A DNA stretch of 50,192 bases, taken from a virus. The stretch is taken from positions 1-50,192 of the IMG/VR virus record IMGVR_UViG_3300002835_000286, one strand, 5' to 3'. Each line of letters starts with the position of its first letter. Position 1 is the first letter of the stretch. Under the pieces are notes generated by a model. The model was not told the origin of the DNA and made no database searches. It worked only from the letters and a program-made list of their open reading frames with translations. Below are positions 8,076-49,043 of this stretch, in pieces. A program made the translations under genes and the position numbers.

Positions 8076-8108
8076 AAGGCTGGCTAGAGAAATCTAGCTG
8101 GCCTTTTT
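8076..8108 (+). terminator. Rho-independent terminator ending the rightward arm
   Basis: AAGGC pairs with GCCTT and an inner GCTAGA-GAAA-TCTAGC stem extends it; a T5 run follows on the + strand. It stops late transcription about 60 bp after the last virion gene. The stop codon of the opposing HNH gene lies within it. Confidence 0.8.
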
Positions 8109-8525
8109 CATTTCTAGATCATCATAGCTTCTCGAATGTAATTCTCTATGACAATTGGAACAAACTAGAATACATTTCGAGAGTTCAGTTAATATTTTTG
8201 GATGGGTAAGGGAGTATGATTGTAGGAGTTTAGCAATACCTCCCTCTTTCTTTTTAGGGTCAGTATGGTGAAAGTCATACGCAGACTGGTGAAAAACACC
8301 ACCACAAACTACACATTTACCTCCAAGTAACTGTATTGCCTCTTGCTTCCTCTTTCGTGTAGCAAGCAGCAGACCTCTGACTATACAAGATTTGCACCAA
8401 GTATTAAGACCATCCTTTGCTTTCTTTTGTTTCCAGAAGTCGACAAGTGGTGTTAGTGTACCGCATTTAGTGCATACCTTACACCCCGCATGAACCACCT
8501 TTCCCTCCGATTTCACAGATGTCAT
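8094..8525 (-). CDS. HNH endonuclease with N-terminal zinc-binding region
   Basis: A 143-residue protein. Two CxxC pairs near the N-terminus (CTKCG and CKSC) precede an HNH core with CVVC, the FHHTDPKKK motif and CSNCHRELH. It is of the same type as the HNH protein encoded at 14817-15263. The start given overlaps the last 47 bases of the ribonucleotide reductase gene in another frame; a GTG at about 8498 is an alternative. Free-standing HNH genes of this kind often act as homing endonucleases that cut related phage genomes lacking the gene. The location at the 3' edge of the reductase gene fits this. Target and activity are not known. Confidence 0.85.
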   Translation of the reverse strand: MTSVKSEGKVVHAGCKVCTKCGTLTPLVDFWKQKKAKDGLNTWCKSCIVRGLLLATRKRKQEAIQLLGGKCVVCGGVFHQSAYDFHHTDPKKKEGGIAKLLQSYSLTHPKILTELSKCILVCSNCHRELHSRSYDDLEMKKAS

Positions 8526-10155
8526 TCTCGACGTAAACTACTCCTTTGTGCTTGATAGCTTCGGAGTAAGGCACTTCAGTGAGAGGCTGTCCACCCCTAC
8601 TTCCATCTGGATAGCTTGTAAATCCACGAAGTCGAGGAGCATACTTTGATAAGACTTGCGCAAAATGCGTAACTTTCTCTTCGTTGTTATCTTTCGTCCC
8701 CCAAGCAGGTAGATTAATTGTGCTTGAGATTGACATATCGACATAATCTTGGATGTCAGCTTGGAATTTAATTCGCTGCTCATAGTTACTTCCTAGTTTG
8801 TAAGCTGTTTCAATTTTCTCAGGATCAATACCTTGCTTGATAAGAATATCTGCTGTACTGTCAACGCAATACTCATAATGCCAACGAGTACCATCCTTAA
8901 CATAACGACGCTTATAAGCAACAGCAAAAAGAGGTTCAATGCCGGTAGTAGTAGAAGCAAGAATACCAAGAGTGCCAGTTGGAGCAATAGACCTGAAGGC
9001 TTTAGGATGGGAGAGATAGAATCGGTCACAATGCTCTCTTCCTGACTTCTCCGATTCACTCCTGTATACTTCAAGCCATTCCTTGAGTTCCGGAACCACC
9101 TCATAGCCATAGCCCTTTTTCAGCAGCCATTCGTGAATACCCATGAGGCCGAGGCCAAGTCGTCTGTTTTTCTCTCGGACTTGATAAACTTTCTCGTATG
9201 GAAGACTAGCGCGTAGGGTTCCACAGACGAGGAACTTTGATGCCAGCGATACCACAGATTTGAGTTCTTCCAGAGAACTGACAACGCCAAGATTGACTGA
9301 GCCAAGATTGCATACGTCAGAATCATCCTCACTCGTAACTTCAGTACATGCATTCCTAAGCGTTTCATTTTGCTTCTCTCCAAAATTAAAGGAGAAGCCC
9401 GGCTCTCCTGTTTCCATTGCTTGCCTACAATTCGCTAAGAATGTAGGACTCACTGCCCTAATAGCACTATGCTCAAATTCAGAACTGAATGCAGAGCCGC
9501 TATACAACCAGTCATCATCGTAATTAACTGAGATGTTGGTCATATCCAGCATAGCAGGAAAGTTGAAATCTTCTGCTTTCAGATTCTTAATCTGCTCAGA
9601 CCAATTCTTAGCTTTAAGAAAATCTGGAATATCTTCATGCTTCCAATTTAGCGATGCATATATTGCAGAACGCCGGCTCCCTCCCTGCATAACGTTCCTG
9701 CCAATCTCGTTTATCATGCTCATCAAGGAAAGTGGTCCTGAAGACACACCTCCCGTTCTGCGGATAGGCTTGCCCTTGGCACGGAGAACAGAGTAGTCCA
9801 CACCAATTCCACCCCCTGTCATTAGGCATGAAGTGCTCCTCTTTGCGAGGTCTGCCCATTCTTCCCTTGTATCGTGCTCAGCACGAAGCAAGTAGCAATT
9901 GTTGAAGTAAGAGTTAGGCCTACCAGCATAGTATATGTAACGGCCTCCTGGTATGAAAGCCATTGTTTTAATGTATTCTGCAAGCTGTTTCCTCTCATCA
10001 GTTGACATGAGGGCTTGTTGTGTGCCCCATCGTGTTCCACAGACATCTTCTACAATACGCTCAGCAGCTTGATCCCAATTATCATCTGGGCCTTGGGCAT
10101 ACTTGAAGCGGAAGACATTCTCCCCTAGATCACTCTTGAATCTGTTCTTCTGCAT
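8479..10155 (-). CDS. nrdJ: B12-dependent (class II) ribonucleotide reductase
   Basis: A 558-residue class II reductase that makes dNTPs from ribonucleotides using adenosylcobalamin, thus needing neither oxygen nor a small subunit. The active-site signature NxCxE is present as N268, C270 and E272. The redox Cys candidates are C87 (FNNCYLL) and C282 (CNLGSVNLG), with C547 and C556 at the flexible C-terminal tail. A PTGTLGILA loop follows near residue 395. No ATP-cone is present, so overall dATP feedback through that domain is unlikely. It is the last metabolic gene of the leftward arm, overlaps the ClpP-like gene by 26 bp, and its 3' end overlaps an HNH gene. The function implies a host that makes or imports cobalamin. 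Confidence 0.92.
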   Translation of the reverse strand: MQKNRFKSDLGENVFRFKYAQGPDDNWDQAAERIVEDVCGTRWGTQQALMSTDERKQLAEYIKTMAFIPGGRYIYYAGRPNSYFNNCYLLRAEHDTREEWADLAKRSTSCLMTGGGIGVDYSVLRAKGKPIRRTGGVSSGPLSLMSMINEIGRNVMQGGSRRSAIYASLNWKHEDIPDFLKAKNWSEQIKNLKAEDFNFPAMLDMTNISVNYDDDWLYSGSAFSSEFEHSAIRAVSPTFLANCRQAMETGEPGFSFNFGEKQNETLRNACTEVTSEDDSDVCNLGSVNLGVVSSLEELKSVVSLASKFLVCGTLRASLPYEKVYQVREKNRRLGLGLMGIHEWLLKKGYGYEVVPELKEWLEVYRSESEKSGREHCDRFYLSHPKAFRSIAPTGTLGILASTTTGIEPLFAVAYKRRYVKDGTRWHYEYCVDSTADILIKQGIDPEKIETAYKLGSNYEQRIKFQADIQDYVDMSISSTINLPAWGTKDNNEEKVTHFAQVLSKYAPRLRGFTSYPDGSRGGQPLTEVPYSEAIKHKGVVYVENDICEIGGKGGSCGV

Positions 10156-11357: not shown

Positions 11358-11730
11358 TAATTAGTCCAATCTCAGTTAGCTTTTCAGTAATGATTTCTAC
11401 CAGCTTTGGATCACGGAACTGATACGCATCAGGGATGTTGAGGACATGCACTTCTTTAACCTGCAGGTTGTAATCCTTAAGAGACTTATGATGTTCCTTA
11501 GCAGCAAATATAATGATGTCAGCCCATTGAATCAGTACATCATCAACCTCGACTAAGGCATAGTCATGGACGCCAGCAGCACGGGTGTTATATCCATGTT
11601 GGCTTAGAACATAAGCAATAGTAGGAGAGCGTAGAAGACCAGCAGAACATACACATAAGACTCGTTTAAAGTCGCCCTGATTAGGGTTTTGACAATTCCA
11701 TAATGCATTGTGTCGAATCTCTTTATCCAT
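11350..11730 (-). CDS. Low-molecular-weight protein tyrosine phosphatase-like protein
   Basis: About 126 residues from the ATG at 11730, chosen because it overlaps the stop of the upstream phosphoesterase gene in the ATGGATAA style used across this operon; a start further upstream would run deep into that gene. The phosphate-binding loop CX5R is VCSAGLLRS and the general-acid loop is probably IPDAY near the C-terminus. The family removes phosphate from Tyr or arginine residues of proteins. In a phage it may reset host phosphosignalling or capsule-related tyrosine kinases; this is inference. The mixed CSAGLLRS loop differs from the usual CxGNxCRS. Confidence 0.75.
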   Translation of the reverse strand: MDKEIRHNALWNCQNPNQGDFKRVLCVCSAGLLRSPTIAYVLSQHGYNTRAAGVHDYALVEVDDVLIQWADIIIFAAKEHHKSLKDYNLQVKEVHVLNIPDAYQFRDPKLVEIITEKLTEIGLINV

Positions 11731-12232
11731 TAAATCTCTCACGAATTTCCTCAAAGTTAACAGGGGTGTAATTGATAGCCTCAACACTCACATTTACATA
11801 CTGGTTAGAAGCTAAACTGTTTGCATGTACATGACCATGAATGTTGGCAATCCACCGATACATGCTGTCTGGATGCAGAGGGATGTGGCTAAGCACAAAC
11901 TTATCCAGAGTGTGCGTAGCCCTTACATCCTTGAACATTTGAGCATACTGACTAAGCTTGAGATTGTCATGGTTTCCCTTAATGAGGATTTTTGTACCAT
12001 TCAAATAATCAAACACTCGCTTCATATACTCAAAGTTCTTAAATCCAACATCCCCTAAGTGATACACCTTGTCTTCAGGCTTGACAACATTATTCCAGTT
12101 CTCCATCAACACCTCATCATGATGATGGATGTTATGGAAACCCCCACGGAGAGGGCTTCCATCTTGACGCAAGAAGGTTAGAATGTTGGCATGACCAAAG
12201 TGTGTATCCGCAATAAGGAAAGTTTTAGCCAT
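11723..12232 (-). CDS. Calcineurin-like metallophosphoesterase (169 aa)
   Basis: Start at 12232 (MAKTF), which places the metal-binding motif DTHFGH near the N-terminus as usual. Further motifs are HLGDVG, KGNHDN, LSHIP and HGHVHAN, the complete five-motif signature of the superfamily. The nearest characterised relatives of this short form are phosphodiesterases and phosphatases acting on nucleotides or small molecules. It overlaps the second phosphoesterase gene by 8 bp. Two adjacent but dissimilar phosphoesterases plus a tyrosine phosphatase make a phosphate-ester-cleaving block. Confidence 0.85.
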   Translation of the reverse strand: MAKTFLIADTHFGHANILTFLRQDGSPLRGGFHNIHHHDEVLMENWNNVVKPEDKVYHLGDVGFKNFEYMKRVFDYLNGTKILIKGNHDNLKLSQYAQMFKDVRATHTLDKFVLSHIPLHPDSMYRWIANIHGHVHANSLASNQYVNVSVEAINYTPVNFEEIRERFNG

Positions 12233-12989
12233 ACTTATGCTGAAGGTACTTGAGACTAACTTGCATTGGTTCAAACTCTCCATCATGCGTGTCATTCAGC
12301 ATCCAGACACCCCTCCAATGTACATTCCCTTGTGGCCCCATGTAGTCTTCATCATGCAGGTAGCAAGCACCAGAGAAGAGACCAGTGATACGCTTACCTT
12401 CAGCAGTGTATTGACTAGCAATACCGTCCTGCTGAACATGACCCATTACGCAGGAGACATGCTTCTTTGTGATAAGAGCATTAGGACTTGTAACTGGCCT
12501 TCCAGCCACACCACTTGTGAAATAATGGCTAAAGCAGACACCATTGATAGAAACAACAGCAAGGTAAGGGTAAACTTCCCAACCAAACTCTTGATATTGC
12601 AGATCATCAATTGATAGAACACCATCAAGCTTAGCATCGTCATTGACAGCCCGATTAATACGTTCATCGTGATTTCCTAAAGTCATTACCAAACGTGGAT
12701 TATAAACTTTCTTCTTGTTAATGATCTGTTGTTCTTGTAGGTTAAACAGAGGGTGAAGAAGTTTTCCTTGTGCTTCAATAACACTATCTACGTCATCACG
12801 ATAACGACGACCTTCAAAGCTCTTCTTACCTACATCATAGGAAGAGAGACTAGGCATATCAGCAAAATCACCAATCTGCACAATGACATCAGGACGCTTA
12901 TCAACAATCATCTGACCAATCCACTCAAGGTGGGAAGTATCTACACCGGGTTTAACTTGGCAATCAGGGATTACAAGAATCTTACTCAA
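12225..12989 (-). CDS. Calcineurin-like metallophosphoesterase (254 aa)
   Basis: Motifs in order are IPDCQVKPG (Asp of motif I), QIGDFAD, TLGNHDERI, FSHYF and MGHVQQDG. These are the superfamily's metal ligands, with the last His pair altered relative to the usual GHTH. The protein differs in length and sequence from the adjacent phosphoesterase, so the pair is not a simple tandem duplication. Substrate is unknown; phage relatives are generally described only as phosphoesterases. It overlaps the DUF3310 gene by 4 bp (ATGA-type coupling). Confidence 0.83.
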   Translation of the reverse strand: MSKILVIPDCQVKPGVDTSHLEWIGQMIVDKRPDVIVQIGDFADMPSLSSYDVGKKSFEGRRYRDDVDSVIEAQGKLLHPLFNLQEQQIINKKKVYNPRLVMTLGNHDERINRAVNDDAKLDGVLSIDDLQYQEFGWEVYPYLAVVSINGVCFSHYFTSGVAGRPVTSPNALITKKHVSCVMGHVQQDGIASQYTAEGKRITGLFSGACYLHDEDYMGPQGNVHWRGVWMLNDTHDGEFEPMQVSLKYLQHKYG

Positions 12990-19499: not shown

Positions 19500-20062
19500 T
19501 TATTGATTATCGCCTTCCAATAGCTGTCAGTGTTATACTCATATACAACTACACCCTCAACATTCATATATCCGGGAGCAGCTAAGCTACCTCCTTCAAT
19601 AAGCTTCTGCTTAGCTTCTTCAGTTGTAGCTGCATGAATTGTGGGAACTACACGGCAACATGCCGGAGTATTAGGATTGTGTGGCCCCCATCGCTTAGTA
19701 TTAAACAAGGAGAACACCTTCTCTTTCATGTCATAGGTACGACCAACCCCTTGCCCCCACCATTCTCCATAGTGGTAGCCCTCACCAAGGCCCATGAGAT
19801 CAACAACATTCTTCTCAACCCATTTAGCAAACCCGAAGTTGTCATCTTCAGGAGTAATCAATCTGTTACGTGATTGTGCCCAAAATCCATACACTTTATC
19901 ATCGTGCATGTAGAGGCGTTCAATTGGTTGAGGCGTACCCTCTTCCAATTGTGTCGCATCACAGATGAAGATACATGCATTAGTGCCATCAATCTTCTCT
20001 GTGTAGAATTCCTTCTTATTTTCTACACGTGGAATCTTAGGCCAAGCTTTAAAGATTTCCAT
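19496..20062 (-). CDS. RNA ligase family protein
   Basis: A 188-residue nucleotidyltransferase-fold ligase. Motif I is TEKIDGTNA with the Lys that takes AMP (about residue 23); motif Ia/III candidates are AQSRNR and HYGEWWGQG; motif IV is VEGVVVY and motif V WKAIINK. The compact length and motif spacing fit the Rnl2 / DRB0094-like group. Such phage ligases repair cut tRNAs or other RNAs; this genome has a tRNA-Leu but no visible polynucleotide kinase. It begins 1 base into the stop of the primase-helicase gene. A C-terminal domain is absent. Confidence 0.85.
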   Translation of the reverse strand: MEIFKAWPKIPRVENKKEFYTEKIDGTNACIFICDATQLEEGTPQPIERLYMHDDKVYGFWAQSRNRLITPEDDNFGFAKWVEKNVVDLMGLGEGYHYGEWWGQGVGRTYDMKEKVFSLFNTKRWGPHNPNTPACCRVVPTIHAATTEEAKQKLIEGGSLAAPGYMNVEGVVVYEYNTDSYWKAIINK

Positions 20063-21729
20063 TACACAACCCCCATTTCGTTAAACAACCCTGTTGCTGC
20101 ATCCCAATAGAGATGGAACCTGCCATTCTCTCCAAATTCCCTATCTTCCAACAGAACTAGCTGTCGAATGTTTCGTTCATGCTGCGGGAGATTTGGGTCT
20201 CGATTTCCTTCGATACCCAACATAAGGTTACAACTGCGGGCCATAGCCCTAGAGCCAGCGAACTGACTACTGAGAACTTCACCACCTCGTTCATGTGGGG
20301 GACCAGCATCCGGATTACGAAGATGACAAAAGATAAAGATAACCACGTTGAGATCGAGAGCCATAGCTGAAAGCTCTTGGGCAATCTCTTGAAGCTTGGT
20401 GTTAGCATCTGCTGCATTCACTCCATTAGTGAGGTTGGTAATAGGGTCTATAAAAATAGCCTTACACCCTTCTAAGGCTGCTTCTCTGATGTCTGCTTTA
20501 AGCGTTTCCCACCCGACATGCTGGTAGAGATTAATAAGAACAAGATTGTCACCAATCTCCTCAACTGCTTCATCATAGGCTTTCTCATCAAAAGGAATCT
20601 TAGGATCATGGAAGATTTTACCTGCCATCTTACCTGCCACCATCTTAACACTCTTTACATTAGCCTCTTCAGGCTTAGCCAGTAACACCTTCCAGCCATG
20701 CTCACGAATGCAATGGGCTGCTAGTGTATTAACTACCTCGCTCTTCCCTTGCTTTTGACCAGCACCGATGTAAATAGTTTCACCTAGACGCAAACCACGT
20801 GTCAAATTGGTGATACCTTTCCACGGCCATGAGAAGCCCCATTCTGGAATCTTCTTAGCTTCCTTAAACAGGTCTCTAGCATTCACTAGGCGGGTGTTCT
20901 TAGGCTTCTTGGCATTGAAGACACAGGCATTGAAGCAAGCCTTGCTACGGCCCTCTACGAGGCATTCTCCTGCATCCTTAGCAGGGAGTGCAGCAACAAT
21001 AGCTTCAGGGAGAATCTTCATACTATCTTCTACAGCAGCTTGCCCCGGAGCATCCATATCAAATACTAGGACAATCTCCTTGAAATGCTGTCGTAAATCC
21101 TTAGCTACTGAAGCAAGTGTCTTACTTGCACTGCTGCTGCCATTAACAAGAGACACCACAGCAGGATCAATGGCTGCATACTCACCTTTCTGCCCTTCCT
21201 TAAGAATCTGATAGAGAGCCATTGCATCAATCTCTCCTTCAGTGATATAGAGGCGTTTAGTACCTGACTGAACAGCTTTGTCCCATCCGAACAAATCTGC
21301 ATCAGCAATTCGACCAATACCCCAGAATTTCTTACCCTCTACGAGGCGACACTTATAACCCACTAGCTCCCCTTGTTTCTTATAGGGATAGTAATGTGCT
21401 ACAATTGTCTCTCCGTCCTCTTCAGAGACAGATGTACGTGTCCCAAAATAGGAGAGGGTGGCTGCTGTTAATTTCCTATCCTTAAGCTCTAAGCTCTTGA
21501 ATTGATTAATGGCCTTAAGTTCTTGAGCTATTTCTTCAGGGGTTTTCTTAAACCCCACAGGAGGTTTATACCCTTCCGGCTTGTCCTCATATGGATTAGG
21601 GACATACGTTTTACATGCGAAACAGAACCCGCTGTATGTCCCGTCATCATTAGAGAAGATGTTTAGTCCTCGTCGAGAATGGCATGTCTCTGTTTCATGT
21701 GCAATTCGATCAACTACGCTTCCTGACAT
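20062..21729 (-). CDS. DNA primase-helicase (T7 gp4-like)
   Basis: I start it at the ATG at 21729 (MSGSVV), which has an AAAGGAAA ribosome site 5 nt upstream; a TTG further upstream lacks this. The 555 residues hold an N-terminal zinc-ribbon remnant (CHSRRG and CFAC), a TOPRIM primase core (ITEGEIDAMAL, VLVFDMDAPG) and a RecA-type hexameric helicase with Walker A GAGQKQGKSEV, Walker B AIFIDPITN, and SQFAGSRAMAR. It unwinds the fork and lays down primers for the family A polymerase. The zinc site shows Cys and His rather than the four Cys of T7 gp4. The helicase P-loop has GQKQGKS. Confidence 0.92.
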   Translation of the reverse strand: MSGSVVDRIAHETETCHSRRGLNIFSNDDGTYSGFCFACKTYVPNPYEDKPEGYKPPVGFKKTPEEIAQELKAINQFKSLELKDRKLTAATLSYFGTRTSVSEEDGETIVAHYYPYKKQGELVGYKCRLVEGKKFWGIGRIADADLFGWDKAVQSGTKRLYITEGEIDAMALYQILKEGQKGEYAAIDPAVVSLVNGSSSASKTLASVAKDLRQHFKEIVLVFDMDAPGQAAVEDSMKILPEAIVAALPAKDAGECLVEGRSKACFNACVFNAKKPKNTRLVNARDLFKEAKKIPEWGFSWPWKGITNLTRGLRLGETIYIGAGQKQGKSEVVNTLAAHCIREHGWKVLLAKPEEANVKSVKMVAGKMAGKIFHDPKIPFDEKAYDEAVEEIGDNLVLINLYQHVGWETLKADIREAALEGCKAIFIDPITNLTNGVNAADANTKLQEIAQELSAMALDLNVVIFIFCHLRNPDAGPPHERGGEVLSSQFAGSRAMARSCNLMLGIEGNRDPNLPQHERNIRQLVLLEDREFGENGRFHLYWDAATGLFNEMGVV

Positions 21730-21739
21730 ATGTTTCCTT

Positions 21740-21820
21740 TCATTTCTTTTCTCCAAAGGCTAGGCGTTCGATTAGGTCAGCGGCTTGTGTCATCTCGATT
21801 GCGCGTAGGTGGGTTAGCAT
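21740..21820 (-). CDS. Possible 26-aa peptide upstream of primase-helicase
   Basis: A 26-codon frame (begins MLTHLRAIEM, ends LAFGEKK) that ends 10 bp before the primase-helicase ATG. A weak AGAGGTGA site precedes it by 12 nt. It could be a short leader peptide or a chance frame; support is limited to position in a dense operon. Confidence 0.3.
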   Translation of the reverse strand: MLTHLRAIEMTQAADLIERLAFGEKK

Positions 21821-22222: not shown

Positions 22223-22536
22223 TTCATACTCCTGAGTTCATCAGCCAATGTAGCCCATCCGTGTAGCTCGGCATAATGAGCACACCGTTCCCTCTCAGCC
22301 CTCAGCGCAGCATCAAGGGCCGATGAGTCGTCGGGAGTGGCGAGGGCTACAATTATTTCATCAACTATTGGTTTATAACCTCCCTCTACATCAGGATCAA
22401 TACAGGTTTGCAAGCCATTCAATGCCCCTCGCAATTCCTTGATGCGAGCTTGTGCGGCGGCGAGTTGATCTTGTGTTTCTTTATGGAAGCTCTCTTCAGC
22501 CTCCAATTGAGCAACACAAGCAGATATAACGTCCAT
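22219..22536 (-). CDS. Accessory phage hypothetical protein, coiled coil (105 aa)
   Basis: The N-terminal 45 residues form a coiled coil (LEAEESFHKETQDQLAAA). The C-terminal part has ALDAALRAERERCAHYAE, a motif seen often in small accessory proteins of proteobacterial phages. Like its neighbour it is G+C-richer than the surrounding arm. It starts on the last base of the amidoligase stop (TAATG). Function unknown. Confidence 0.65.
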   Translation of the reverse strand: MDVISACVAQLEAEESFHKETQDQLAAAQARIKELRGALNGLQTCIDPDVEGGYKPIVDEIIVALATPDDSSALDAALRAERERCAHYAELHGWATLADELRSMK

Positions 22537-23531
22537 TATTCCTTCACCTCCAAATAAGGCATACTAATCAACATACTATAAGCAGCCCTCATCTCCTGTT
22601 CCATTTCTGTATAGGAGAATAAGGGGAGATGCGGCCCAAATACCTCTGTTGCTAGCAGTAATGGAGATGTTAAAGCCATCTGCTTAATGACATGAATTGA
22701 ATACTTCTGCGAAATGTTACGTATATTTTGTAACACATCCAACCACGGGAAGAGAACAGCAATGTCAAGCGTTCCCCTCATAGCCCTGAATTCAATACTC
22801 CCTTGCGTCATCATAGGACAGAGGTTGATAGCACAATACTTGTAGCTATCCTCTCTAATCCCATTAAACCCTCGCTTAAGGAGGAAATCATAAGCTGCTT
22901 CTAGTTGATATTCAGCATCACAACACCGGAGGCAGAAGCGATTACCACTACGGGAGTCTCCACCAAACCTAGTCAAAGCATTCTCAAGGAGGTAGCTCAG
23001 ATAGAGGAATGTGTGAATCTGGTGTTTAGTGAATTCCAATACATTAACATGAACATGCACAGATGTACGGAAAGAGAAATCCAATACAGCTTTGTTAGCT
23101 GAGAGGGCTGTATTCAGGTCAACCAAGGCTTTCTTAGCATCTTCCAAAGCTAATGGCTTACGAAGAATGTACTCCCTGCTCTCGCCACGTAAGGAACCAT
23201 CAGCTTTGTCAGTCCATTTACCTGAGATGGCCTTAAGGAGATTGGTTCCTTCAGTTTCAATTTCAATTCCGAAGGTGCCTTTAGTTTTTAAACCGATAGC
23301 TTGAGTTAGGGTGTAGGATTGTGGAGGTTGTAATTGACAAGGGTTAGACACCTCATCCAAAATAACAACTTTTGGGATCACCCTAGCTCCCCGTCGTGGC
23401 TCTAATCCTTGGGCCACATTCATGAACATCTCAGGGGGCTTCCTCACCAATACATTATCACCATTGATAACGGGACGAGCGATAGGTTGAGCTAGCATTT
23501 CCTCAAAGAAGGGATTATCAAAATCAGGCAT
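22536..23531 (-). CDS. Amidoligase (Amidoligase_2-type COOH-NH2 ligase)
   Basis: A 331-residue member of the glutamine-synthetase-fold amidoligase superfamily. The first metal-binding strand is FGIEIETEG (about residue 90), followed by DGSLRGESREYILRKP, then SVHVHVNV and the late strand GSIEFRAMRGT. These correspond to the Glu and His ligands expected for Mg-ATP. The family is predicted to join a carboxyl to an amine, as in isopeptide or peptide bonds; substrates are unknown. I start at ATG 23531, overlapping the stop of the gene upstream. It belongs to a block with a second amidoligase, ATP-grasp ligase and two amidotransferase-fold genes. Confidence 0.82.
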   Translation of the reverse strand: MPDFDNPFFEEMLAQPIARPVINGDNVLVRKPPEMFMNVAQGLEPRRGARVIPKVVILDEVSNPCQLQPPQSYTLTQAIGLKTKGTFGIEIETEGTNLLKAISGKWTDKADGSLRGESREYILRKPLALEDAKKALVDLNTALSANKAVLDFSFRTSVHVHVNVLEFTKHQIHTFLYLSYLLENALTRFGGDSRSGNRFCLRCCDAEYQLEAAYDFLLKRGFNGIREDSYKYCAINLCPMMTQGSIEFRAMRGTLDIAVLFPWLDVLQNIRNISQKYSIHVIKQMALTSPLLLATEVFGPHLPLFSYTEMEQEMRAAYSMLISMPYLEVKE

Positions 23532-24099
23532 TTTCAAATACCCCCATTAAATAGTTCATGCTTCGCTTAAATAGAAAGCGATTAGAAACCTCATCATACA
23601 TCCCCACTTTCTTAGTGATGTGAATGATTTCATGGTCAGCAGAGATAGCAAATGAGCGATGGAAAGCTAATGCTTTTCTTCCTGTATCTCGTATGATACC
23701 AATTGCTTCCATCACTGAGGGGTAACGCCCATCTGCACAATCTGTAATAGGAGAACCCTTAATATTGAAAATCTCATTCACCACCTCACGTGAAGGACTT
23801 CTCTCTGTCAAACTCTGCACTATAAGATTCTGCACAGTGAGTCCTTGCTTGAATTGACGCTTAGGAATGCGAGAGAGGAATACAGTTTCATTCTTGCAAT
23901 TGCACATTCCCAAAGGGAGAGGACGAAAATCAAGACGTTTATCAGAAAGAGGTATCTTTACCATACCACCATCAATTGTGCTAAGACCCAATTGATGATC
24001 GTCCGTAACGTAAGACACATATACAGGCTTCTTTTCAAACCTGATGATGCTCTCTGCAAAGATTGTGACTAAATCACCAACCTCAACATTTTCATACAT
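23524..24099 (-). CDS. Uncharacterised protein between the two amidoligases (191 aa)
   Basis: Start at 24099 (MYENVEVGDLV), which overlaps the stop of the type-2 amidoligase gene by 8 bp. The first 60 residues look like a small beta-barrel (VGDLVTIFAES, then KPVYVSYVTDD), followed by a helical half with SPSREVVNEIF and DGRYPSVMEAIGIIRD. No catalytic motif recognised. It is overlapped at both ends by amidoligase genes, so it may be a partner or adaptor of these enzymes. That is an inference from gene order only. Confidence 0.65.
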   Translation of the reverse strand: MYENVEVGDLVTIFAESIIRFEKKPVYVSYVTDDHQLGLSTIDGGMVKIPLSDKRLDFRPLPLGMCNCKNETVFLSRIPKRQFKQGLTVQNLIVQSLTERSPSREVVNEIFNIKGSPITDCADGRYPSVMEAIGIIRDTGRKALAFHRSFAISADHEIIHITKKVGMYDEVSNRFLFKRSMNYLMGVFENA

Positions 24100-24886
24100 G
24101 AGGGATAGCCAGTCCTTCCTTATCAATAATCTTCTTGGCTTTCTTCCAATCAGATGAATTGATAATTTCTTGGATATCCCCATGCTTCTCAAAGAGAGCA
24201 TCACCAGACATCAAACGGTGCATACCAGATTGAATAGCATTAAACACCCATTCCATAGTAGTACGAGAGTTGAGCCAAGCATTTGACAGGGTGCGATATT
24301 CACAACCATAACTCTTAGGACGGAAGCATCCAGCCTTGCCATACAGTTCACGACGACGATTATCCTTGTCGTATGCAATGGAAGGCAAACCAAGGAAGAA
24401 ATCCATCTGGCGAGCTACAGCACCAGCAGCATAGAAATGCTCAGCGGATTGGATGTCAGCATCCTTAGTCCATCCGATATGAACATGACCTGATGCAGTG
24501 CGGAAGGGACGATCACCATTAGGCTTACCATTGGCATTCATCGACCAGCCATTGTAATCAGGGTCACAACCAAGCTCAAGGGCTTCAGCAGGCTGTTCCT
24601 TCATATACTGAGGGTCAAAATCAGCTACAGGACATGCCACCACCTGATATTCAGGAACCATAGCACAAAGCTGTGCATAGACATCCTCAACGTTGATGAT
24701 GAATTCATTAGCAGAAGCAGCAGGGTAGGTATTGAACTCAAGAGCCATACCATCCACTTGAACAGCCCCATTACGTACAGGGAAGGGATTGGCCTTATCT
24801 CCCTTGATTAGACCATAAGCAGAGAGGAATTTGTTCCCCTGCTTAACAAATACTTCTGGATCACAGCCAACAAGAATGGATTGCAT
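24092..24886 (-). CDS. phiEco32-like amidoligase, type 2 (COOH-NH2 ligase)
   Basis: A 264-residue amidoligase of the second phage type. The N-terminal strand GCDPEVFV carries the first acidic ligand, then VDGMALEFNTYPA, SGHVHIGW (His ligands) and SYGCEYRTLSNAWL near residue 205. The order matches the COOH-NH2 ligase family described from phiEco32-like phages. It should activate a carboxylate with ATP and ligate it to an amine. The substrate might be a peptidoglycan peptide, a protein side chain or a small metabolite; none is indicated here. It is only distantly similar to the other amidoligase in the block. Confidence 0.85.
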   Translation of the reverse strand: MQSILVGCDPEVFVKQGNKFLSAYGLIKGDKANPFPVRNGAVQVDGMALEFNTYPAASANEFIINVEDVYAQLCAMVPEYQVVACPVADFDPQYMKEQPAEALELGCDPDYNGWSMNANGKPNGDRPFRTASGHVHIGWTKDADIQSAEHFYAAGAVARQMDFFLGLPSIAYDKDNRRRELYGKAGCFRPKSYGCEYRTLSNAWLNSRTTMEWVFNAIQSGMHRLMSGDALFEKHGDIQEIINSSDWKKAKKIIDKEGLAIPHV

Positions 24887-24888
24887 TG

Positions 24889-25149
24889 TTACTTCTCCTT
24901 TGCTTGATTACGATGTGCATCCCTCTTTGAGGGCTGCTTGCTTGGGTTGCGCTTAAAGGTGATACCTTTCTTGTGCAGACTAACAACACCATTACTGTCC
25001 TTCTTTTCAAAGAATACAGCAGATTCATGAACTACAACAGGAAGATGCTTGTGCTTAGCAGCACGTTTCTCTGCTTTCTCATTCTTCGGATATTCATACT
25101 TAGGCAGACGAGAGAGCAGGCATTGAATCAAGGTGTATTTATTTTCCAC
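24889..25149 (-). CDS. Small basic protein in the amidoligase cluster (86 aa)
   Basis: A GTG start at 25149 is preferred: it is preceded by GAAAGGAA and avoids a long overlap with the amidotransferase gene. The product is strongly basic, beginning with an aromatic helix (NKYTLIQCLLSRLPKYEY) and ending in a Lys/Arg tail (KQPSKRDAHRNQAKEK). It looks like an RNA- or nucleoprotein-binding peptide, or perhaps a ligation substrate. No family recognised. Confidence 0.6.
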   Translation of the reverse strand: MENKYTLIQCLLSRLPKYEYPKNEKAEKRAAKHKHLPVVVHESAVFFEKKDSNGVVSLHKKGITFKRNPSKQPSKRDAHRNQAKEK

Positions 25150-25160
25150 GGTATTTCCTT

Positions 25161-26390
25161 TCAAGGGGCAGTTGGGAGGTAATTCTGAATTTCCGGGTCT
25201 TCTGCGCAATCAACACAGAGGCAAGCTTCTTTACCAAGGATTTTGAAATTGGTGAGGTATTCAAGATTTGCGCTACAAAAGGCACAGCCAGTATACCTCT
25301 GATAGAATTCAACAGCAGTGATGGGAAATCCATGATGGTCTACTTTAACAACCTTCTCAGCCTTAGTATTAACCTTGTAATACCGATCAACACCGTTCTT
25401 GAAGCTGCCAATGGTGAAATATTGCTGACCATCCTTAATACGAGTTTGGCATTCTTCCAGTGTTGAGCAAAACATACGAAAGTTCTCACCTTTATATTGC
25501 TCCGATATAAGATTGACGTAATAAGCTCCATTACGACCACCAGACCACCGAGGATTGAGAAGCAGACGTTGCCCTTTCAATGCTCCTTGAGACAGTTTCT
25601 TGTTGATATGGGTGATATTAGACGACGAATTCGTCGTCGTCGTAGAGTGCCCCATACATCCACCTTTGACGAAATTTGAGACAGGCACCGGATTCTGTTT
25701 CACTTCACTGACTATAGGAAATCCAAAATCTGCTGATCGAGCAGGAATATTGTAGGTATATTCCTTATCCTCAGGGAGAAGCCATATATCTTTGTAGTCA
25801 ACAGATTGACGTTGGAGAATAGCATGAAGCATCCAAGCTTCTGATGCCCAGAATACACATTTATTGTCCTTAGTTTCTGCTACAAACAAAGGACGTTCCT
25901 TATTACGAAGCAGGTGCACAGCATTCGTCCGTGTGTCATACCATGTTAATGCATATGCACCTTGGACAGGAGCAAGAGTTTCCTTAGCTCCACGAATATC
26001 AATACTGTTGAAGATGGCTTCACTATCCGTGTCATACTGATATGCATCAGGGATAGCCCCTTTATTGGTCAGCGTGCCATTATGCGCCCCTACAATGTTC
26101 TTGGTAAGGAAAGGGTGGGCATTCTTACGTACCACTTTCCCAATAGTGGCAGAGCGATTGTGACCAATCAGACAGCTATTAGCTTGACGCATACCAGCTT
26201 CAAATGCAACAGTTTCAAGGAGTTGGAAAGGATCACCAACAGTTTTAGCTAGATGCACATCCTTTAAAATATTCACAAAGGCAGCACCAGTGCTGTCCAT
26301 TCCTCGAAGAGAATCAAGGATTAGGAGATGCCTAAATGCATCTTCCTCTTTCTTATTGAGAGTGCCAGCGGCACCAACTAGACCACACAT
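25161..26390 (-). CDS. Class II glutamine amidotransferase with C-terminal zinc ribbon
   Basis: A 409-residue Ntn-type amidotransferase. Cys2 (MCGLVG) is the nucleophile; RGMDSTG (about 30), GHNRSAT (about 76) and AHNGTL (about 103) form the glutamine pocket. It would release ammonia from glutamine. After residue 250 a Ser/Thr/Asn linker leads to a region without a synthetase domain, and the C-terminus holds a four-Cys zinc ribbon (CAFC ... CLCVDC). Class II domains usually feed a fused synthase; here the acceptor is probably an amidoligase or ATP-grasp enzyme of the same operon. It overlaps the next gene by 1 base (TAATG). Confidence 0.88.
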   Translation of the reverse strand: MCGLVGAAGTLNKKEEDAFRHLLILDSLRGMDSTGAAFVNILKDVHLAKTVGDPFQLLETVAFEAGMRQANSCLIGHNRSATIGKVVRKNAHPFLTKNIVGAHNGTLTNKGAIPDAYQYDTDSEAIFNSIDIRGAKETLAPVQGAYALTWYDTRTNAVHLLRNKERPLFVAETKDNKCVFWASEAWMLHAILQRQSVDYKDIWLLPEDKEYTYNIPARSADFGFPIVSEVKQNPVPVSNFVKGGCMGHSTTTTNSSSNITHINKKLSQGALKGQRLLLNPRWSGGRNGAYYVNLISEQYKGENFRMFCSTLEECQTRIKDGQQYFTIGSFKNGVDRYYKVNTKAEKVVKVDHHGFPITAVEFYQRYTGCAFCSANLEYLTNFKILGKEACLCVDCAEDPEIQNYLPTAP

Positions 26391-27019
26391 TAGGCTTTAA
26401 CTCCAAGATGACGTTTAACAAGGGAAAAGAAATACTCCTGATGGATTGGACCATCATATTCAGGGTGAGGTTGATAACACAAGCATTGAGTGTGAGGGTA
26501 GAACACTACTTCTGTATCCGGCTCAGGAACCTCAACAGACTTGATGATACCATTCTCCATGTGCTGCTTGAAGCCCTTCTCTTCTGCCGTAGCAACAAGG
26601 ATACCTGTTGGCCCCTTTCGCATCATCTGATGGTGAGTGGAGGTTACAAATACATTCTCCTTTGTAATCAAATCCTTAAGCACATGAGAGCGTGTATGAT
26701 TGGAGACATGCTGATACATCTTACCCCCATTCATTACATTAAGGAACTGACCACCACGGCAGATACCCACCATCGGAATCTCAGCAATACCAAATTCCTT
26801 GAATAGGGCACGTTCTTGTGTATCCCTTGCCAGAGAGCTATATGTAGAAGGATGCTTATCTTCCCCATAAAGCGCAGGGGTGACATCCTCACCACCAGTG
26901 AAGCATACAAGATCAGGTATATCTGCATCCAAAGAAGCAAGCACTGTGAATCCAGCTTTTAGGAACATAGATGCATATGCCCCACTGCCATTCACAATAT
27001 ACACTTTCTTAGTTGGCAT
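26390..27019 (-). CDS. Class I glutamine amidotransferase-fold hydrolase (peptidase C26-like)
   Basis: 209 residues from the ATG at 27019, 7 nt after AAGGAG. FTGGEDVTP and YGE are typical of gamma-glutamyl-gamma-aminobutyrate hydrolase relatives. The triad is present: Cys in GICRGGQFLN and His/Glu in QPHPEY. The family cleaves gamma-glutamyl bonds or transfers the glutamyl amide. In this operon it could remove, edit or recycle bonds made by the ligases. No fused synthase is seen. The gene overlaps the upstream 265-residue gene by 11 bp. Confidence 0.83.
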   Translation of the reverse strand: MPTKKVYIVNGSGAYASMFLKAGFTVLASLDADIPDLVCFTGGEDVTPALYGEDKHPSTYSSLARDTQERALFKEFGIAEIPMVGICRGGQFLNVMNGGKMYQHVSNHTRSHVLKDLITKENVFVTSTHHQMMRKGPTGILVATAEEKGFKQHMENGIIKSVEVPEPDTEVVFYPHTQCLCYQPHPEYDGPIHQEYFFSLVKRHLGVKA

Positions 27020-27806
27020 CATCAATCTCCTTAAGCTTTGCAATCAATTCAGGCTTGGTTAAATCAACATGAGGAACAGCAGCCCACTCATTCCTTTCCT
27101 TCTTATTAACACAGAAAGGTTTCAGCAATTCAAGGATATATGTGGCCTTATCTCTACTTGGGAATATGTCTTGAATCCCGTAGAAAGAATTAGCTGCCTT
27201 ATTCATAGGCTTAGGAGAGCTTCTCTTGTACTGAGTTGCTCCCTGCTTATAGCTAGTGAGTGTGCTTAGAGTAGGCTCACAGAACAAATCATGCCCACTA
27301 TTACGTCCTCCTAGCACATTTCCTCTGGTAATCCCACAGACAATATGACTAAGCTCAGGGCTAATCCCCTGCTTACGTAGAGCAAAGAATGTGGGAGCAG
27401 TGTGAGCATGTTCCAAAGGCTCACGAATAGCTGTGAGGGCAGCCACAATAAACGTAGGGGGCATGTTAGTATTGATTGCCAAGCCATATTTGTAATAGTT
27501 GCTCTTCCCGTTGAGGAAAGCTTTCTTCCATAGGCTTTCATTCACCACCCAATGAACAAAATCCTTGTACTGTTTAAGGGTTTTCCGTGTCTTAAAATAA
27601 TGTGGCCCTTGATTCAGATATACACGAGCTTTCTTGATGCCTGAATCATAGCTCGTAAATCGTGCATAACACACATCAGAGAAATTCAAGGAGATACTCC
27701 CATCTCCCTTCTGAAATACATAATGGGAGATTCTCGTTTTGCTCGCATTTGGACCATGTTTCAAAACCTCTTTAATGAGGCTACAAGGCTTTATTTTCTT
27801 CTTCAT
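27009..27806 (-). CDS. Uncharacterised protein in the amidoligase cluster (265 aa)
   Basis: A basic, mixed alpha/beta protein. Visible features are CSLIKEVLKHG near the start, an IVCGITRGNVLGGRNSGHD loop rich in Gly around residue 155, and YKRSSPKPMNKAANSFYG. I recognise no known family. It lies between the ATP-grasp and class I amidotransferase genes and is probably part of the same pathway. Gly-rich loop and neighbouring His/Asp might be catalytic, but this is speculative. Confidence 0.62.
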   Translation of the reverse strand: MKKKIKPCSLIKEVLKHGPNASKTRISHYVFQKGDGSISLNFSDVCYARFTSYDSGIKKARVYLNQGPHYFKTRKTLKQYKDFVHWVVNESLWKKAFLNGKSNYYKYGLAINTNMPPTFIVAALTAIREPLEHAHTAPTFFALRKQGISPELSHIVCGITRGNVLGGRNSGHDLFCEPTLSTLTSYKQGATQYKRSSPKPMNKAANSFYGIQDIFPSRDKATYILELLKPFCVNKKERNEWAAVPHVDLTKPELIAKLKEIDDAN

Positions 27807-27861
27807 GAGGGCTTCCTATTGGTTAAGGGGAGAAAAGGGCACAGAGAGGCTGTAATGGCGT

Positions 27862-28569
27862 TTAAACCACATTCTTAAGCATCTTCTTAAATGCTGTAAT
27901 GGCTTCATCTGTAATAATGGGGCCAGAATTGGCTTCCAAGATGACAAATTGCTTCTGCTTATTCATCACTACATCAAAGCCTACATAGTCAATACGGAGG
28001 GCATCAGCAGCTTTCAGGCAATGTGCTTTCATATCATCGAAATGGATGGAATCAACAAGGGTGAGAGTCCATTCATCATTCTTTTGCACCTTCTCATACA
28101 CATTGCAACTCGTGATACCATTCTTCACAGGCACCACAACAACACGGTATTCCTTGTGATGAGCGAAATACTTGGTATAGAGAGGAGCGTCCGGGATATC
28201 TTGGTCTTGAGGATCAATATAGCGCATCCCCTTATTACCTGCACCATCCACATCATGACGGACAACGACACAGGGCCAGTCCTTCACCTTAGCTGCATTG
28301 GTGGTGAATTCAGGAATGTTGATACCTCCTGCTTCCTTCAACACAGTGAATGTACGCAGCTTGTCAATGCAACAAGCAACAGCCTTAGCGCCATTGATGA
28401 GGCGATTAGCTTTGATGTTCCTGTTGCAGCCATAGTTGATTACCAAGTCGTAATCACGATAGTCCTTCTTCTCACTTTGATAGGGATTCTCAGCTTGAGC
28501 ACCAATAGCATTAGCTAGGGCAGTTGCAGACTTACGACAGATTTGTGGATAGAGAACGATGATTTTCAT
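27862..28569 (-). CDS. ATP-grasp ligase (RimK-like fold)
   Basis: A 235-residue ATP-grasp protein. The nucleotide-binding lid is in VVVRHDVDGAGNKGMRYI (about 101-118), followed by YTKYFAHHKEYRVVVV and the Mg-binding strand VILEANSGPI near residue 215; a CIDKLRTFTVLKEAG helix marks the ATP-grasp entry. The family couples ATP to ligation of a carboxyl to an amine or thiol through an acyl phosphate. As the first enzyme of the amidoligase block it may add an amino acid to the substrate used by the following enzymes. It overlaps the small gene upstream by 4 bp and has the site AAGGAACTAGC before its ATG. Confidence 0.88.
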   Translation of the reverse strand: MKIIVLYPQICRKSATALANAIGAQAENPYQSEKKDYRDYDLVINYGCNRNIKANRLINGAKAVACCIDKLRTFTVLKEAGGINIPEFTTNAAKVKDWPCVVVRHDVDGAGNKGMRYIDPQDQDIPDAPLYTKYFAHHKEYRVVVVPVKNGITSCNVYEKVQKNDEWTLTLVDSIHFDDMKAHCLKAADALRIDYVGFDVVMNKQKQFVILEANSGPIITDEAITAFKKMLKNVV

Positions 28570-28781
28570 GCTAGTTCCTTGAGTTTAAATGCCAAAGCAA
28601 AATGAACACCCTTATCATCACCTGACACAAATTGAAAATCACCACTATTGTATCCGGGAATGGCAGAAATTTCTGCATCCATGAGGATTACACGTCCCCT
28701 GATGCTCTTCTGTCCACCAAAGAAAGCGTGATGATATGCATCATCCTTATGTACAGACAAAATCTTGTACTTCTTGAACAT
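28566..28781 (-). CDS. Small conserved hypothetical protein (71 aa)
   Basis: A 71-residue, probably beta-rich protein beginning MFKKYKILSVHKDDAYHHA and ending VHFALAFKLKELA. Its ribosome site AAAGGAACTAGC is nearly the same as that of the following ATP-grasp gene, and the two genes overlap by 4 bp. It is the first gene of the amidoligase transcription block after the tRNA. Function unknown. Confidence 0.62.
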   Translation of the reverse strand: MFKKYKILSVHKDDAYHHAFFGGQKSIRGRVILMDAEISAIPGYNSGDFQFVSGDDKGVHFALAFKLKELA

Positions 28782-28979: not shown

Positions 28980-29064
28980 TGGTGGGGGTAGCAGGATTCC
29001 AACCTGCATGACCGAAGTCCTCTGATTTTAAGTCAGATGTGTAAAGCAGTTCCACCATACCCCC
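28980..29064 (-). tRNA. tRNA-Leu (anticodon TAA)
   Basis: The acceptor stem GGGGGTA pairs with TACCCCC, followed by A and an encoded CCA. The anticodon arm is TCTGA-CTTAAAA-TCAGA, giving anticodon TAA. A long variable arm (GAC-TTCG-GTC) marks a class II tRNA, and the T-arm is GCAGG-TTGGAAT-CCTGC. It reads TTA codons (and TTG by wobble), which are frequent in this A+T-rich genome. Confidence 0.93.
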
Positions 29065-37187: not shown

Positions 37188-37692
37188 AATTCCAAAGAAA
37201 GCAGATTTAGTGGACAATGGTGGTAAGCCATTAACCCAATCTCTTTTCTTAGAAGTTGCATACAGTGATAAGGCAGTGTACACCCTGAAAGGGGATCACT
37301 GTGAATATGAGGGGAAGATGTTCCCTTCTCTTAAGCGTCTGTATATTGAGATGGAAGACCCAACAGAATATGAATTTGCCACTGCATATCTCTTAGGATA
37401 TAAGCATTGGAAACGTATCTGTGAGAATAAGCTCATTCTTCGGCATATTGAAGAGTGGCGTGAAGAGCTTGAAGTGAAGCTACGTAGCAGGGCTGTCAAG
37501 CATATGCTACAAGCTGCCTCTGAGGGTAACTATCAAGCTGCTAAGTGGTTTGCAGATAGGGGATGGAGTAATAAAGGAGCAGGTCGTCCTACCAAAGCTG
37601 ATATTGATCGTGAGAAGAAGTTCCAAGCACGTGTCGACAGTGAATATGGCAGTGATGTCATCCGTCTCTTTGGTACTGAGCAAGTAGCATGA
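37177..37692 (+). CDS. Terminase small subunit
   Basis: A 171-residue protein. The middle holds basic helices (EELEVKLRSRAVKHMLQ) and the motif AAKWFADRGWSNKGAGRPTK, as in podovirus small terminases (DNA maturase A type). The subunit recognises phage DNA and presents it to the large terminase. The endolysin and holin genes lie between the two terminase genes, as in T7 where the lysis genes are close to the maturases. It overlaps the endolysin gene by 4 bp (ATGA). Confidence 0.75.
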   Translation: MEIKIPKKADLVDNGGKPLTQSLFLEVAYSDKAVYTLKGDHCEYEGKMFPSLKRLYIEMEDPTEYEFATAYLLGYKHWKRICENKLILRHIEEWREELEVKLRSRAVKHMLQAASEGNYQAAKWFADRGWSNKGAGRPTKADIDREKKFQARVDSEYGSDVIRLFGTEQVA

Positions 37693-38057
37693 AAGCTTTT
37701 ACCCTCCGCTCTTTAGAGAAGTTTAAAGGGGTACATCCCCTTTTAGTTAAATGCGCACAGATGGCCCTAGAACGCTCTACAGTTGATTTTCAGATTTCTG
37801 AAGGGGTACGTAGCCTTGAATGGCAGAAAGCTCTCTATGAGGCTAAAAAGAGCCGTACAATGTCTTCCAAGCATCTAGAGGGGAAAGCTATAGATGTTTT
37901 CGCATTAATCGACAATGAAGCGAATTGGGATTTAGCAAACTATGCTAAAATCAATGAAGCTTTCCAATCTGCAGCTAAGGAACTTGGAATCAAGATCACT
38001 TGGGGTGGAAGTTGGAAATCCTTCATTGATGGCGTACATTTTCAAATAGAGGTATAA
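37689..38057 (+). CDS. Endolysin, M15-type peptidase (L-alanyl-D-glutamate peptidase-like)
   Basis: A 122-residue VanY/M15 enzyme. The zinc-site motif is SKHLEGKAIDV (HxxGxAxD, about residue 57) and the second His is in DGVHFQIE at the C-terminus; WGGSW precedes it. SEGVRSLEWQKALYEA resembles the N-terminal helices of T5-type endolysins. It cuts the stem peptide of peptidoglycan at the end of infection. No signal peptide, so it depends on the holin made 2 bp downstream. Confidence 0.9.
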   Translation: MKAFTLRSLEKFKGVHPLLVKCAQMALERSTVDFQISEGVRSLEWQKALYEAKKSRTMSSKHLEGKAIDVFALIDNEANWDLANYAKINEAFQSAAKELGIKITWGGSWKSFIDGVHFQIEV

Positions 38058-48597: not shown

Positions 48598-49043
48598 GCT
48601 ATACAGCACGTATTGCTGAAGAGAAAGATAGTCTCTGGATTGAAGAAGTGGCTGCAGTTAATATGCTCTGTGAAGAGCTTCTTCGTCCAGAGCTTGTAAA
48701 TCCTCAGCGCATTAGAGAACTTGTACATAAAGGTATTACTGAGAAGACTTGCTTCATTGCAGAGAAAGATGGAGAACCTGTAGGCGTATTAGGGGCTTTC
48801 TTAACATCTAATCTCTTTAATCCCGATATCAAAGTATTAGGAGAAGTCTTTTGGTATGTCCTTCCTGAATACAGAAACACAAGGGCTGGTATCCTCCTCT
48901 TCAAACTCTTTGATGCTACGGCTAAGGAGATAGCAGATGAAGCTACCCTTAGCATTTTAATAGCATCTAGTGAAATCAATGTTGATTCATTAGAAAAAAG
49001 AGGATTTAAACTCAATGAATTTGCATTTACTAGGAGATACTAA
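48594..49043 (+). CDS. GNAT-family acetyltransferase-like protein
   Basis: A 149-residue GNAT-fold protein. Strands and helix order fit: N-terminal TARIAEEKDSLWIEE, then FIAEKDGEPVGVLGAFL, the VFWYVLPEYRNTRAGILLF segment as the acetyl-CoA binding loop (R/Q-x-x-G/A region), and VDSLEKRGFKLNEFAF at the end. It lies inside the tail/ejection block, coupled to both sides. Similar genes occur there in other podoviruses; it could acetylate a virion or host protein, or be a structural derivative of the fold. Confidence 0.75.
   Translation: MSYTARIAEEKDSLWIEEVAAVNMLCEELLRPELVNPQRIRELVHKGITEKTCFIAEKDGEPVGVLGAFLTSNLFNPDIKVLGEVFWYVLPEYRNTRAGILLFKLFDATAKEIADEATLSILIASSEINVDSLEKRGFKLNEFAFTRRY

What the first reader, a model, noticed from the sequence alone, without database searches (positions are those of the whole stretch)
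22536..28781. Phage amidoligase / ATP-grasp / glutamine-amidotransferase cluster with uncharacterised partners
Seen: a leftward run of coupled genes encodes an ATP-grasp ligase, a 265-aa unknown, a class I amidotransferase-fold hydrolase with Cys-His-Glu, a class II amidotransferase with Cys2, an 86-aa basic protein, a type-2 amidoligase, a 191-aa unknown and a second amidoligase. Known: Amidoligase_2-type and phiEco32-like type-2 amidoligases, ATP-grasp and GATase II genes co-occur in some phages and are predicted to form peptide or isopeptide bonds. Inference: the set makes, amidates and edits an amide-linked product, perhaps a modified wall peptide, a capped protein or a small molecule that blocks host defence. 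It is about 12 per cent of the genome, so it must matter. The two unknown proteins and the basic peptide are the least described parts.
Basis: partly seen in the sequence, partly recalled or inferred. Interest (0 to 1): 0.85.

Follow-up and report, generated by a model that had tools for sequence, protein, structure and literature searches.

The report
Phage amide-ligase cassette, target unknown
A marine-type phage carries a block of genes that very probably builds and trims an amide-linked product during infection; the block was already known as a suspected cell-wall-modifying cassette, but two unnamed proteins turn out to be core parts of it, and its real target is still untested.

Summary
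The window is a Zobellviridae-like phage genome. At 22536-28569 (- strand) lies a tightly packed run: ATP-grasp ligase, 265-aa unknown (X), class-I/C26 hydrolase, class-II glutaminase, basic protein, phiEco32-type COOH-NH2 ligase (LIG), 191-aa unknown (Y), second amidoligase (AL2). It is a new member of a published cassette, the 'peptidoglycan modification' module, for which I found no functional test. New here: (1) X is in 47 of 48 complete Zobellviridae-type loci and Y in 48 of 48, so both are core parts. X has a confident model with no PDB match and a near-invariant Cys-Arg-Glu-His set despite 13% mean column identity; remote homologues occur singly or in pairs in other cassette phages. (2) Three ATP-grasp subtypes replace each other; the window has a rarer one. 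(3) 63 of 65 complete cassettes carry a C26 hydrolase or a gamma-glutamyl cyclotransferase, pointing to a gamma-glutamyl-type amide. (4) The basic protein is not conserved. (5) LIG was not found in plasmids and, in cellular genomes, only on 12 metagenome contigs, mostly phage-like. (6) Phage FBPa8 has a natural LIG truncation. DNA hypermodification is unlikely; wall, soluble-metabolite and protein targets stay open.

The parts
27862..28569 (-). ATP-grasp ligase, 235 aa, of the rarer upstream subtype ('a')
   Evidence: PF02655 above cut-off, phrog_2599; 18-row clade 100/100; D199/E212/N214 conserved
27009..27806 (-). X, 265 aa, core protein without Pfam family; near-invariant C46, R128, E132, H172
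26390..27022 (-). GAT-I: class-I amidotransferase-fold C26 hydrolase (ORF open from TTG 27043; likely start ATG 27022 or 27019)
   Evidence: PF07722 E 6e-22; C95/H193/E195 (77/77 loci each); solved relatives include PuuD
25161..26390 (-). GAT-II: class-II glutamine amidotransferase with C-terminal CxxC...CxxC
   Evidence: PF13522 E 1e-17; conserved Cys2, N104-G105, D122 and four Cys
24889..25149 (-). 86-aa basic ORF, accessory: no homologue in related loci
24092..24886 (-). LIG: phiEco32-type COOH-NH2 ligase, 264 aa
   Evidence: PF14395 32.5 bits, phrog_3815 E 1e-83; DPE, HxH, RR, EYR invariant or nearly so
23524..24099 (-). Y, 191 aa, core protein of phrog_11055; start overlaps the LIG stop
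22536..23531 (-). AL2: Amidoligase_2-type ligase (ORF open from TTG 23537; likely start ATG 23531)
   Evidence: phrog_7469 E 1.7e-53, PF12224 20.1 bits; ExExE, HxHxN, ExR conserved
28566..28781 (-). 71-aa ORF at the head of the run; overlaps the ATP-grasp start; no homologue among the accessory ORFs of the other loci

Best explanation
This is a phage amide-ligation cassette, a new member of the known LUZ24/phiEco32/RIO-1 'peptidoglycan modification' module. Shown: the gene set, intact catalytic residues, conserved order and membership, X and Y as core parts. Inferred: the proteins act together in the cytoplasm around the time of DNA replication. Two GS-like ligases and an ATP-grasp ligase use ATP to join a carboxylate (probably a glutamate side chain) to amines or amino acids; GAT-II, perhaps with GAT-I, frees ammonia from glutamine; the C26 enzyme (a GGCT in other phages) cuts gamma-glutamyl amides, so the product is built and then trimmed or recycled. 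X is probably a thiol-dependent enzyme or a scaffold, Y an adaptor. The single most likely target, at about one in three, is the peptidoglycan stem-peptide precursor pool, as published; a soluble gamma-glutamyl metabolite is nearly as likely. The confidence below is for the pathway-level statement, not for the target.
For: Family assignments; catalytic residues conserved across about 80 loci; conserved order and co-occurrence, X 47/48 and Y 48/48; every one of 63 complete loci keeps at least one ATP-grasp although three subtypes replace each other; 63 of 65 complete loci carry C26 or GGCT; GAT-I's solved relatives include PuuD, a gamma-glutamyl hydrolase; ATP-grasp of relatives closest to RimK-type glutamate ligases; enzymes of a related cassette detected in proteomics of phage SU10 (PMC4281155); published as one module (PMC5498523; PMC11945000).
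Against: No substrate or product is known; the chemistry is inferred from families. The LIG profile found no solved structure and the AL2 profile none of note. C26-versus-GGCT partly follows phage groups, so the association is not independent evidence per locus. GGCT is absent from the window. A natural LIG truncation in FBPa8 shows, if real, that one ligase is dispensable on some host.
Confidence: 0.7

Rival explanations
1. Wall modification (Iyer 2009, Hardies 2013): the cassette puts unusual amide links into peptidoglycan stem peptides, to stop superinfection or to suit the phage's own endolysin.
For: Published reading (PMC5498523; PMC10580990; PMC11945000). The records named in the LIG searches are phages of hosts that have peptidoglycan. 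The window's likely endolysin is an M15 peptidase, a family that acts on stem peptides (established knowledge).
Against: No wall data were found. No recognised envelope or lipid II enzyme in the cassette. C26 and GGCT act on gamma-L-glutamyl amides in known pathways, whereas the wall glutamate is D (established knowledge).
Confidence: 0.33
2. Soluble metabolite: the cassette makes a gamma-glutamyl or peptide conjugate (for example of a polyamine or amino acid) that helps replication or blocks a host defence.
For: GS-like ligase plus C26 hydrolase is the chemistry of PuuA/PuuD (C26 relatives); GGCT replaces or joins C26; no wall or secretion enzyme recognised in the cassette.
Against: No metabolite is known; no defence-related gene was identified next to the cassette.
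Confidence: 0.3
3. Protein modification: the ligases attach amino acids or a tag to host or virion proteins, as RimK does on ribosomal protein S6.
For: The ATP-grasp resembles RimK-type ligases; the pupylation ligase PafA has a GS-like fold (established knowledge).
Against: No conserved small tag protein: the basic ORF has no homologue.
Confidence: 0.15
4. Nitrogen metabolism: the genes are auxiliary metabolic genes that improve ammonia and amino-acid use by the host.
For: Proposed for phage ZRK32, whose locus carries LIG, AL2, GAT-II, ATP-grasp and GGCT (PMC10945688).
Against: The reported effect is of the whole phage, not of the genes; a five-to-seven-protein ordered cassette with X and Y is more than nitrogen supply needs.
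Confidence: 0.06
5. DNA hypermodification: the cassette decorates phage DNA bases with amino-acid amides to resist nucleases.
For: The cassette lies next to or near the primase/helicase in several phage groups; Y weakly resembles small barrels that often bind nucleic acid.
Against: DNA of cassette phage tf was cut by RsaI, HpaI, EcoRV, SmaI and HaeIII in that study (PMC3517423); DNA of LUZ24-like U17 was sensitive to 11 enzymes of the 16 tried (PMC11945000); none of the window proteins scanned matched a hydroxymethylase or base-kinase family.
Confidence: 0.05

Closest known systems
'Peptidoglycan modification cassette' of RIO-1-like, LUZ24-like, phiEco32-like and CW02 phages (Iyer 2009; Hardies 2013; known here through PMC5498523 and PMC11945000)
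   Same: LIG, AL2, ATP-grasp and class-II amidotransferase, with Y between LIG and AL2 and unknown genes upstream of LIG
   Different: The window has C26 in place of GGCT, the rarer ATP-grasp subtype placed upstream of X, and an unconserved basic ORF; X and Y were not named as core parts in the papers read
Cassettes of other Zobellviridae (CW02, CVT22, PA11/Ty-like, oyster phages)
   Same: Order X, GAT-I, GAT-II, LIG, Y, AL2
   Different: Most have the ATP-grasp downstream of AL2, of another subtype
Gamma-glutamyl-putrescine pathway PuuA/PuuD
   Same: A GS-like ligase paired with a C26 gamma-glutamyl hydrolase (PuuD matched by profile)
   Different: Two distinct amidoligases, a class-II amidotransferase, ATP-grasp, X and Y here; a likeness of chemistry only
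RimK (ribosomal protein S6 glutamate ligase)
   Same: ATP-grasp glutamate-ligase family
   Different: Only one of several ligases here; acceptor unknown; the window's own subtype had no significant PDB match on its own

Membership tests
PF14395 COOH-NH2_lig (phiEco32-type) | Profile score above the curated cut-off | tested here: met
   32.5 bits against 25; phrog_3815 E 1e-83
PF14395 COOH-NH2_lig (phiEco32-type) | Conserved GS-like residues (DPE, HxH, EYR) | tested here: met
   86/86 loci
PF14395 COOH-NH2_lig (phiEco32-type) | Carboxylate-amine ligase activity | not testable with these tools
   needs purified protein
PF12224 Amidoligase_2 | Profile score above the curated cut-off | tested here: inconclusive
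   20.1 bits against 22, but phrog_7469 'amidoligase enzyme' E 1.7e-53
PF12224 Amidoligase_2 | ExExE, HxHxN and ExR residues | tested here: met
   84-85 of 84-85 loci
Peptidase C26 / class-I amidotransferase fold | Cut-off reached and Cys-His-Glu present | tested here: met
   78.9 bits against 20.5; C95, H193, E195 in 77/77
Class-II glutamine amidotransferase | N-terminal Cys2 and glutamine-binding residues | tested here: met
   Cys2 in all 68 rows with letters there; N104-G105, D122
'Peptidoglycan modification cassette' | LIG, AL2, ATP-grasp and amidotransferase in one run | tested here: met
'Peptidoglycan modification cassette' | GGCT present | tested here: not met
   no GGCT in the window; C26 present instead, as in 45 of 65 complete loci
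'Peptidoglycan modification cassette' | It modifies peptidoglycan | not testable with these tools
   needs muropeptide analysis; a hypothesis in the papers read
X family (defined here) | C46, R128, E132, H172 and position upstream of the amidotransferases | tested here: met
   C 61/61, R 62/62, E 61/62, H 60/62; 47/48 loci

The most novel reading that the evidence does not exclude
X is a previously undescribed thiol enzyme of new fold, shared by cassette phages, that performs a defining step of a phage-only amide-conjugation pathway whose product (metabolite, tag or wall change) has no bacterial counterpart.
Probability: 0.22. Interest if true: 0.8.

Novelty: new member of a known kind. Interest (0 to 1): 0.5.

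Why it matters
The cassette takes up 12% of this genome and is held by phages of Pseudomonas, Escherichia, Vibrio, Klebsiella, Rhizobium and crAss type; its function was predicted in 2009 and I found no test since. Adding X and Y as core parts, narrowing the chemistry to probable gamma-glutamyl amides, and finding FBPa8, a phage with a truncated LIG that is 97-98% identical over that stretch to phages with full-length LIG, make the question directly testable. If the product is an anti-defence compound or a wall change, it would explain a widespread phage strategy.

Tried and rejected
Basic 86-aa protein as a Pup-like tag: no homologues and no C-terminal Glu or Gln. Fold identity of X from the PDB: no match, best E 1.2. 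Pfam hits of Y (Redoxin, SspH) are weak or limited to few members. LUZ24 gp14/gp15 and crAss gp029/gp030 as X relatives: similar motifs by eye but no significant profile score, left as unproven. Bas86_82 as X: not significant against X directly. DNA hypermodification: argued against by restriction data. The crAss ligase as a query found nothing. Iyer 2009, Hardies 2013 and the mycobacteriophage Marvin paper are not held, so their content is known only through citing papers.

Full report
What is there. The window is the whole stored record of a 50192-base virus. Phages of similar gene content and order are Zobellviridae, such as the oyster-associated phages KZY1 and T2S1 and Salinivibrio phage CW02. 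On the - strand, from 28569 down to 22536, lies a tightly spaced run: ATP-grasp ligase, X (265 aa), GAT-I (C26), GAT-II, an 86-aa basic ORF, LIG (PF14395), Y (191 aa) and AL2. Starts and stops overlap at X/GAT-I, GAT-I/GAT-II, LIG/Y and Y/AL2, as in a co-translated operon. The next large gene downstream is the primase/helicase (20062-21756). A tRNA-Leu lies upstream.

Are these more than chance ORFs? Yes. Five of the eight match enzyme families, and their catalytic or conserved residues are kept in almost all of about 80 related loci: DPE/HxH/EYR in LIG, ExExE/HxHxN/ExR in AL2, C95/H193/E195 in GAT-I, Cys2/Asn-Gly/Asp in GAT-II plus a CxxC...CxxC tail, and D...ExN in the ATP-grasp. AL2 falls 1.9 bits short of the Pfam cut-off, but the phage-specific family and its position place it.

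Co-occurrence. A scan of viral contigs with a LIG alignment found 439 relatives, of which the best 80 were fetched. Profiles built from six or fewer starting phages and refined on these loci found Y, GAT-II and AL2 in essentially all of them and X in most. In 65 loci that are complete around LIG, AL2, GAT-II and ATP-grasp are in all 65; X is in 47 and Y in 48 of the 48 Zobellviridae-type loci. The order X, GAT-I, GAT-II, LIG, Y, AL2 is kept, apart from inserted genes. The loci were chosen by LIG, so this shows that X and Y go with LIG, not that they never occur without it.

X. Despite 13% mean column identity among 62 sequences, C46 is in 61/61, R128 in 62/62, E132 in 61/62 and H172 in 60/62. 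The AlphaFold2 model is confident (pLDDT 90.4, pTM 0.89) and has no match among solved structures (best E 1.2). Among predicted viral proteins, the named matches with E up to 0.001 come from CVT22, CW02, RIO-1, GAP52 and LAh_6 (several rows carried no name). CVT22, CW02 and LAh_6 were seen here to carry the cassette, RIO-1 is listed in PMC5498523, and GAP52 was not checked. Profile searches extend the family to phiM6, Slicky01, BUCT695, SE131 and LAh_6, the last three with two tandem copies, and with lower support to the phiEco32-like protein Bas86_81 (hhalign probability 92.7%). These proteins sit in several separate PHROGs of unknown function: 34254, 27195, 38092, 24882, 19161 and, through Bas86_81, 13102. 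LUZ24 gp14/gp15 and crAss gp029/gp030 occupy the same place but did not reach significance. The Cys-Arg-Glu-His pattern suggests a thiol enzyme, but Glu and His are not kept in all remote copies (by eye), so a scaffold role is possible.

Y. It lies between LIG and AL2 in the Zobellviridae-type loci and, with weaker scores, in phiEco32-like phages. Its model is confident (pLDDT 94.9) but only weakly similar to SH3/KOW/Tudor-type barrels. An adaptor role is an inference.

ATP-grasp. A tree puts the window's enzyme in an 18-row clade (support 100/100) apart from the usual downstream type; a third type is rarer (some long branches). Of 63 complete loci by that call's criterion, 45 have only the usual type, 9 that and the window's type, 5 (the window included) only the window's type, 4 only the third, and none lacks an ATP-grasp. 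The step appears needed but the enzyme exchangeable.

C26 or GGCT. Of 65 complete loci, 45 have C26 only, 12 GGCT only, 6 both, and 2 neither within the fetched flanks (Fisher p 3e-7, not corrected for relatedness, and the split partly follows phage groups). Both enzyme families cut gamma-glutamyl amides in known pathways (established knowledge), and GAT-I's solved relatives include PuuD. This is the best clue to the chemistry.

Distribution. In 84,980 bacterial and archaeal species genomes only 12 LIG matches were found, all on metagenome-assembled contigs; nine carry AL2, GAT-II and Y with it, and two inspected further have large primase- or polymerase-like ORFs beside it, as expected of phage contigs. 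The most distant, L119 from an archaeal bin, holds LIG-, AL2- and GAT-II-like genes in another order. Plasmids have none. The genome search depends on short patterns, so absence is not proof.

Natural truncation. Pseudomonas phage FBPa8 has a LIG of 165 aa that ends before the RR and EYR motifs, while X, GAT-I, GAT-II, Y, AL2 and ATP-grasp are intact. Sister phages PPAY, PPAT and PP21, 97-98% identical over that stretch, have about 363 more bases there. If the record is right, LIG is dispensable on at least one host. An assembly error has not been excluded.

Literature. The module is described as a seven-gene 'peptidoglycan modification cassette', hypothesised to block superinfection (PMC5498523) or to prepare the wall for the phage's own endolysin (PMC11945000). 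Another paper reads the same kind of genes as nitrogen-metabolism genes (PMC10945688). Enzymes of a related cassette were detected in proteomics of SU10 (PMC4281155). I found no genetic or biochemical test in the papers held. DNA modification is unlikely because DNA of cassette phages is cut by many restriction enzymes.

Verdict. It is a new member of a known kind. What this work adds: X and Y as core parts, exchange among ATP-grasp types, the C26-or-GGCT pattern, removal of the basic ORF from the core, and a natural LIG truncation that helps make the open question testable.

Noticed in passing
L121 (ON857932.1, phage FBPa8) 9178-9684: Natural truncation of LIG to 165 aa in an otherwise intact cassette; sister phages 97-98% identical over the stretch have about 363 more bases.
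   Followed up: partly
window 37689-38057 (+): Likely endolysin: Peptidase_M15_4, E 1e-11.
   Followed up: no
window 11723-12989 (-): Two overlapping ORFs (11723-12295 and 12225-12989) both match metallophosphoesterase families; possibly one gene that is split or frameshifted.
   Followed up: no
window 8479-10155 (-): 558-aa ribonucleotide reductase large subunit matching its profiles in two or three separate stretches, next to a 143-aa ORF at 8094-8525 that was not examined.
   Followed up: no
window 48594-49043 (+): GNAT-type acetyltransferase among the virion genes, matching a GNAT gene at the same kind of place in phage KZY1.
   Followed up: no
L120 (OP650935.1, Poriferisphaera phage ZRK32): Phage recorded from a planctomycete, but its cassette and primase region align with Pseudomonas phage LUZ24 at about 68-75% DNA identity; the record is marked unverified.
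   Followed up: partly
L119 (archaeal bin contig JANQNF010000016.1) 2460-9765: LIG-like, AL2-like and GAT-II-like genes in another order on a 175-kb contig assigned to an archaeon.
   Followed up: no
window 28980-29064 (-): tRNA-Leu (anticodon TAA) about 200 bases upstream of the first ORF of the cassette run.
   Followed up: no
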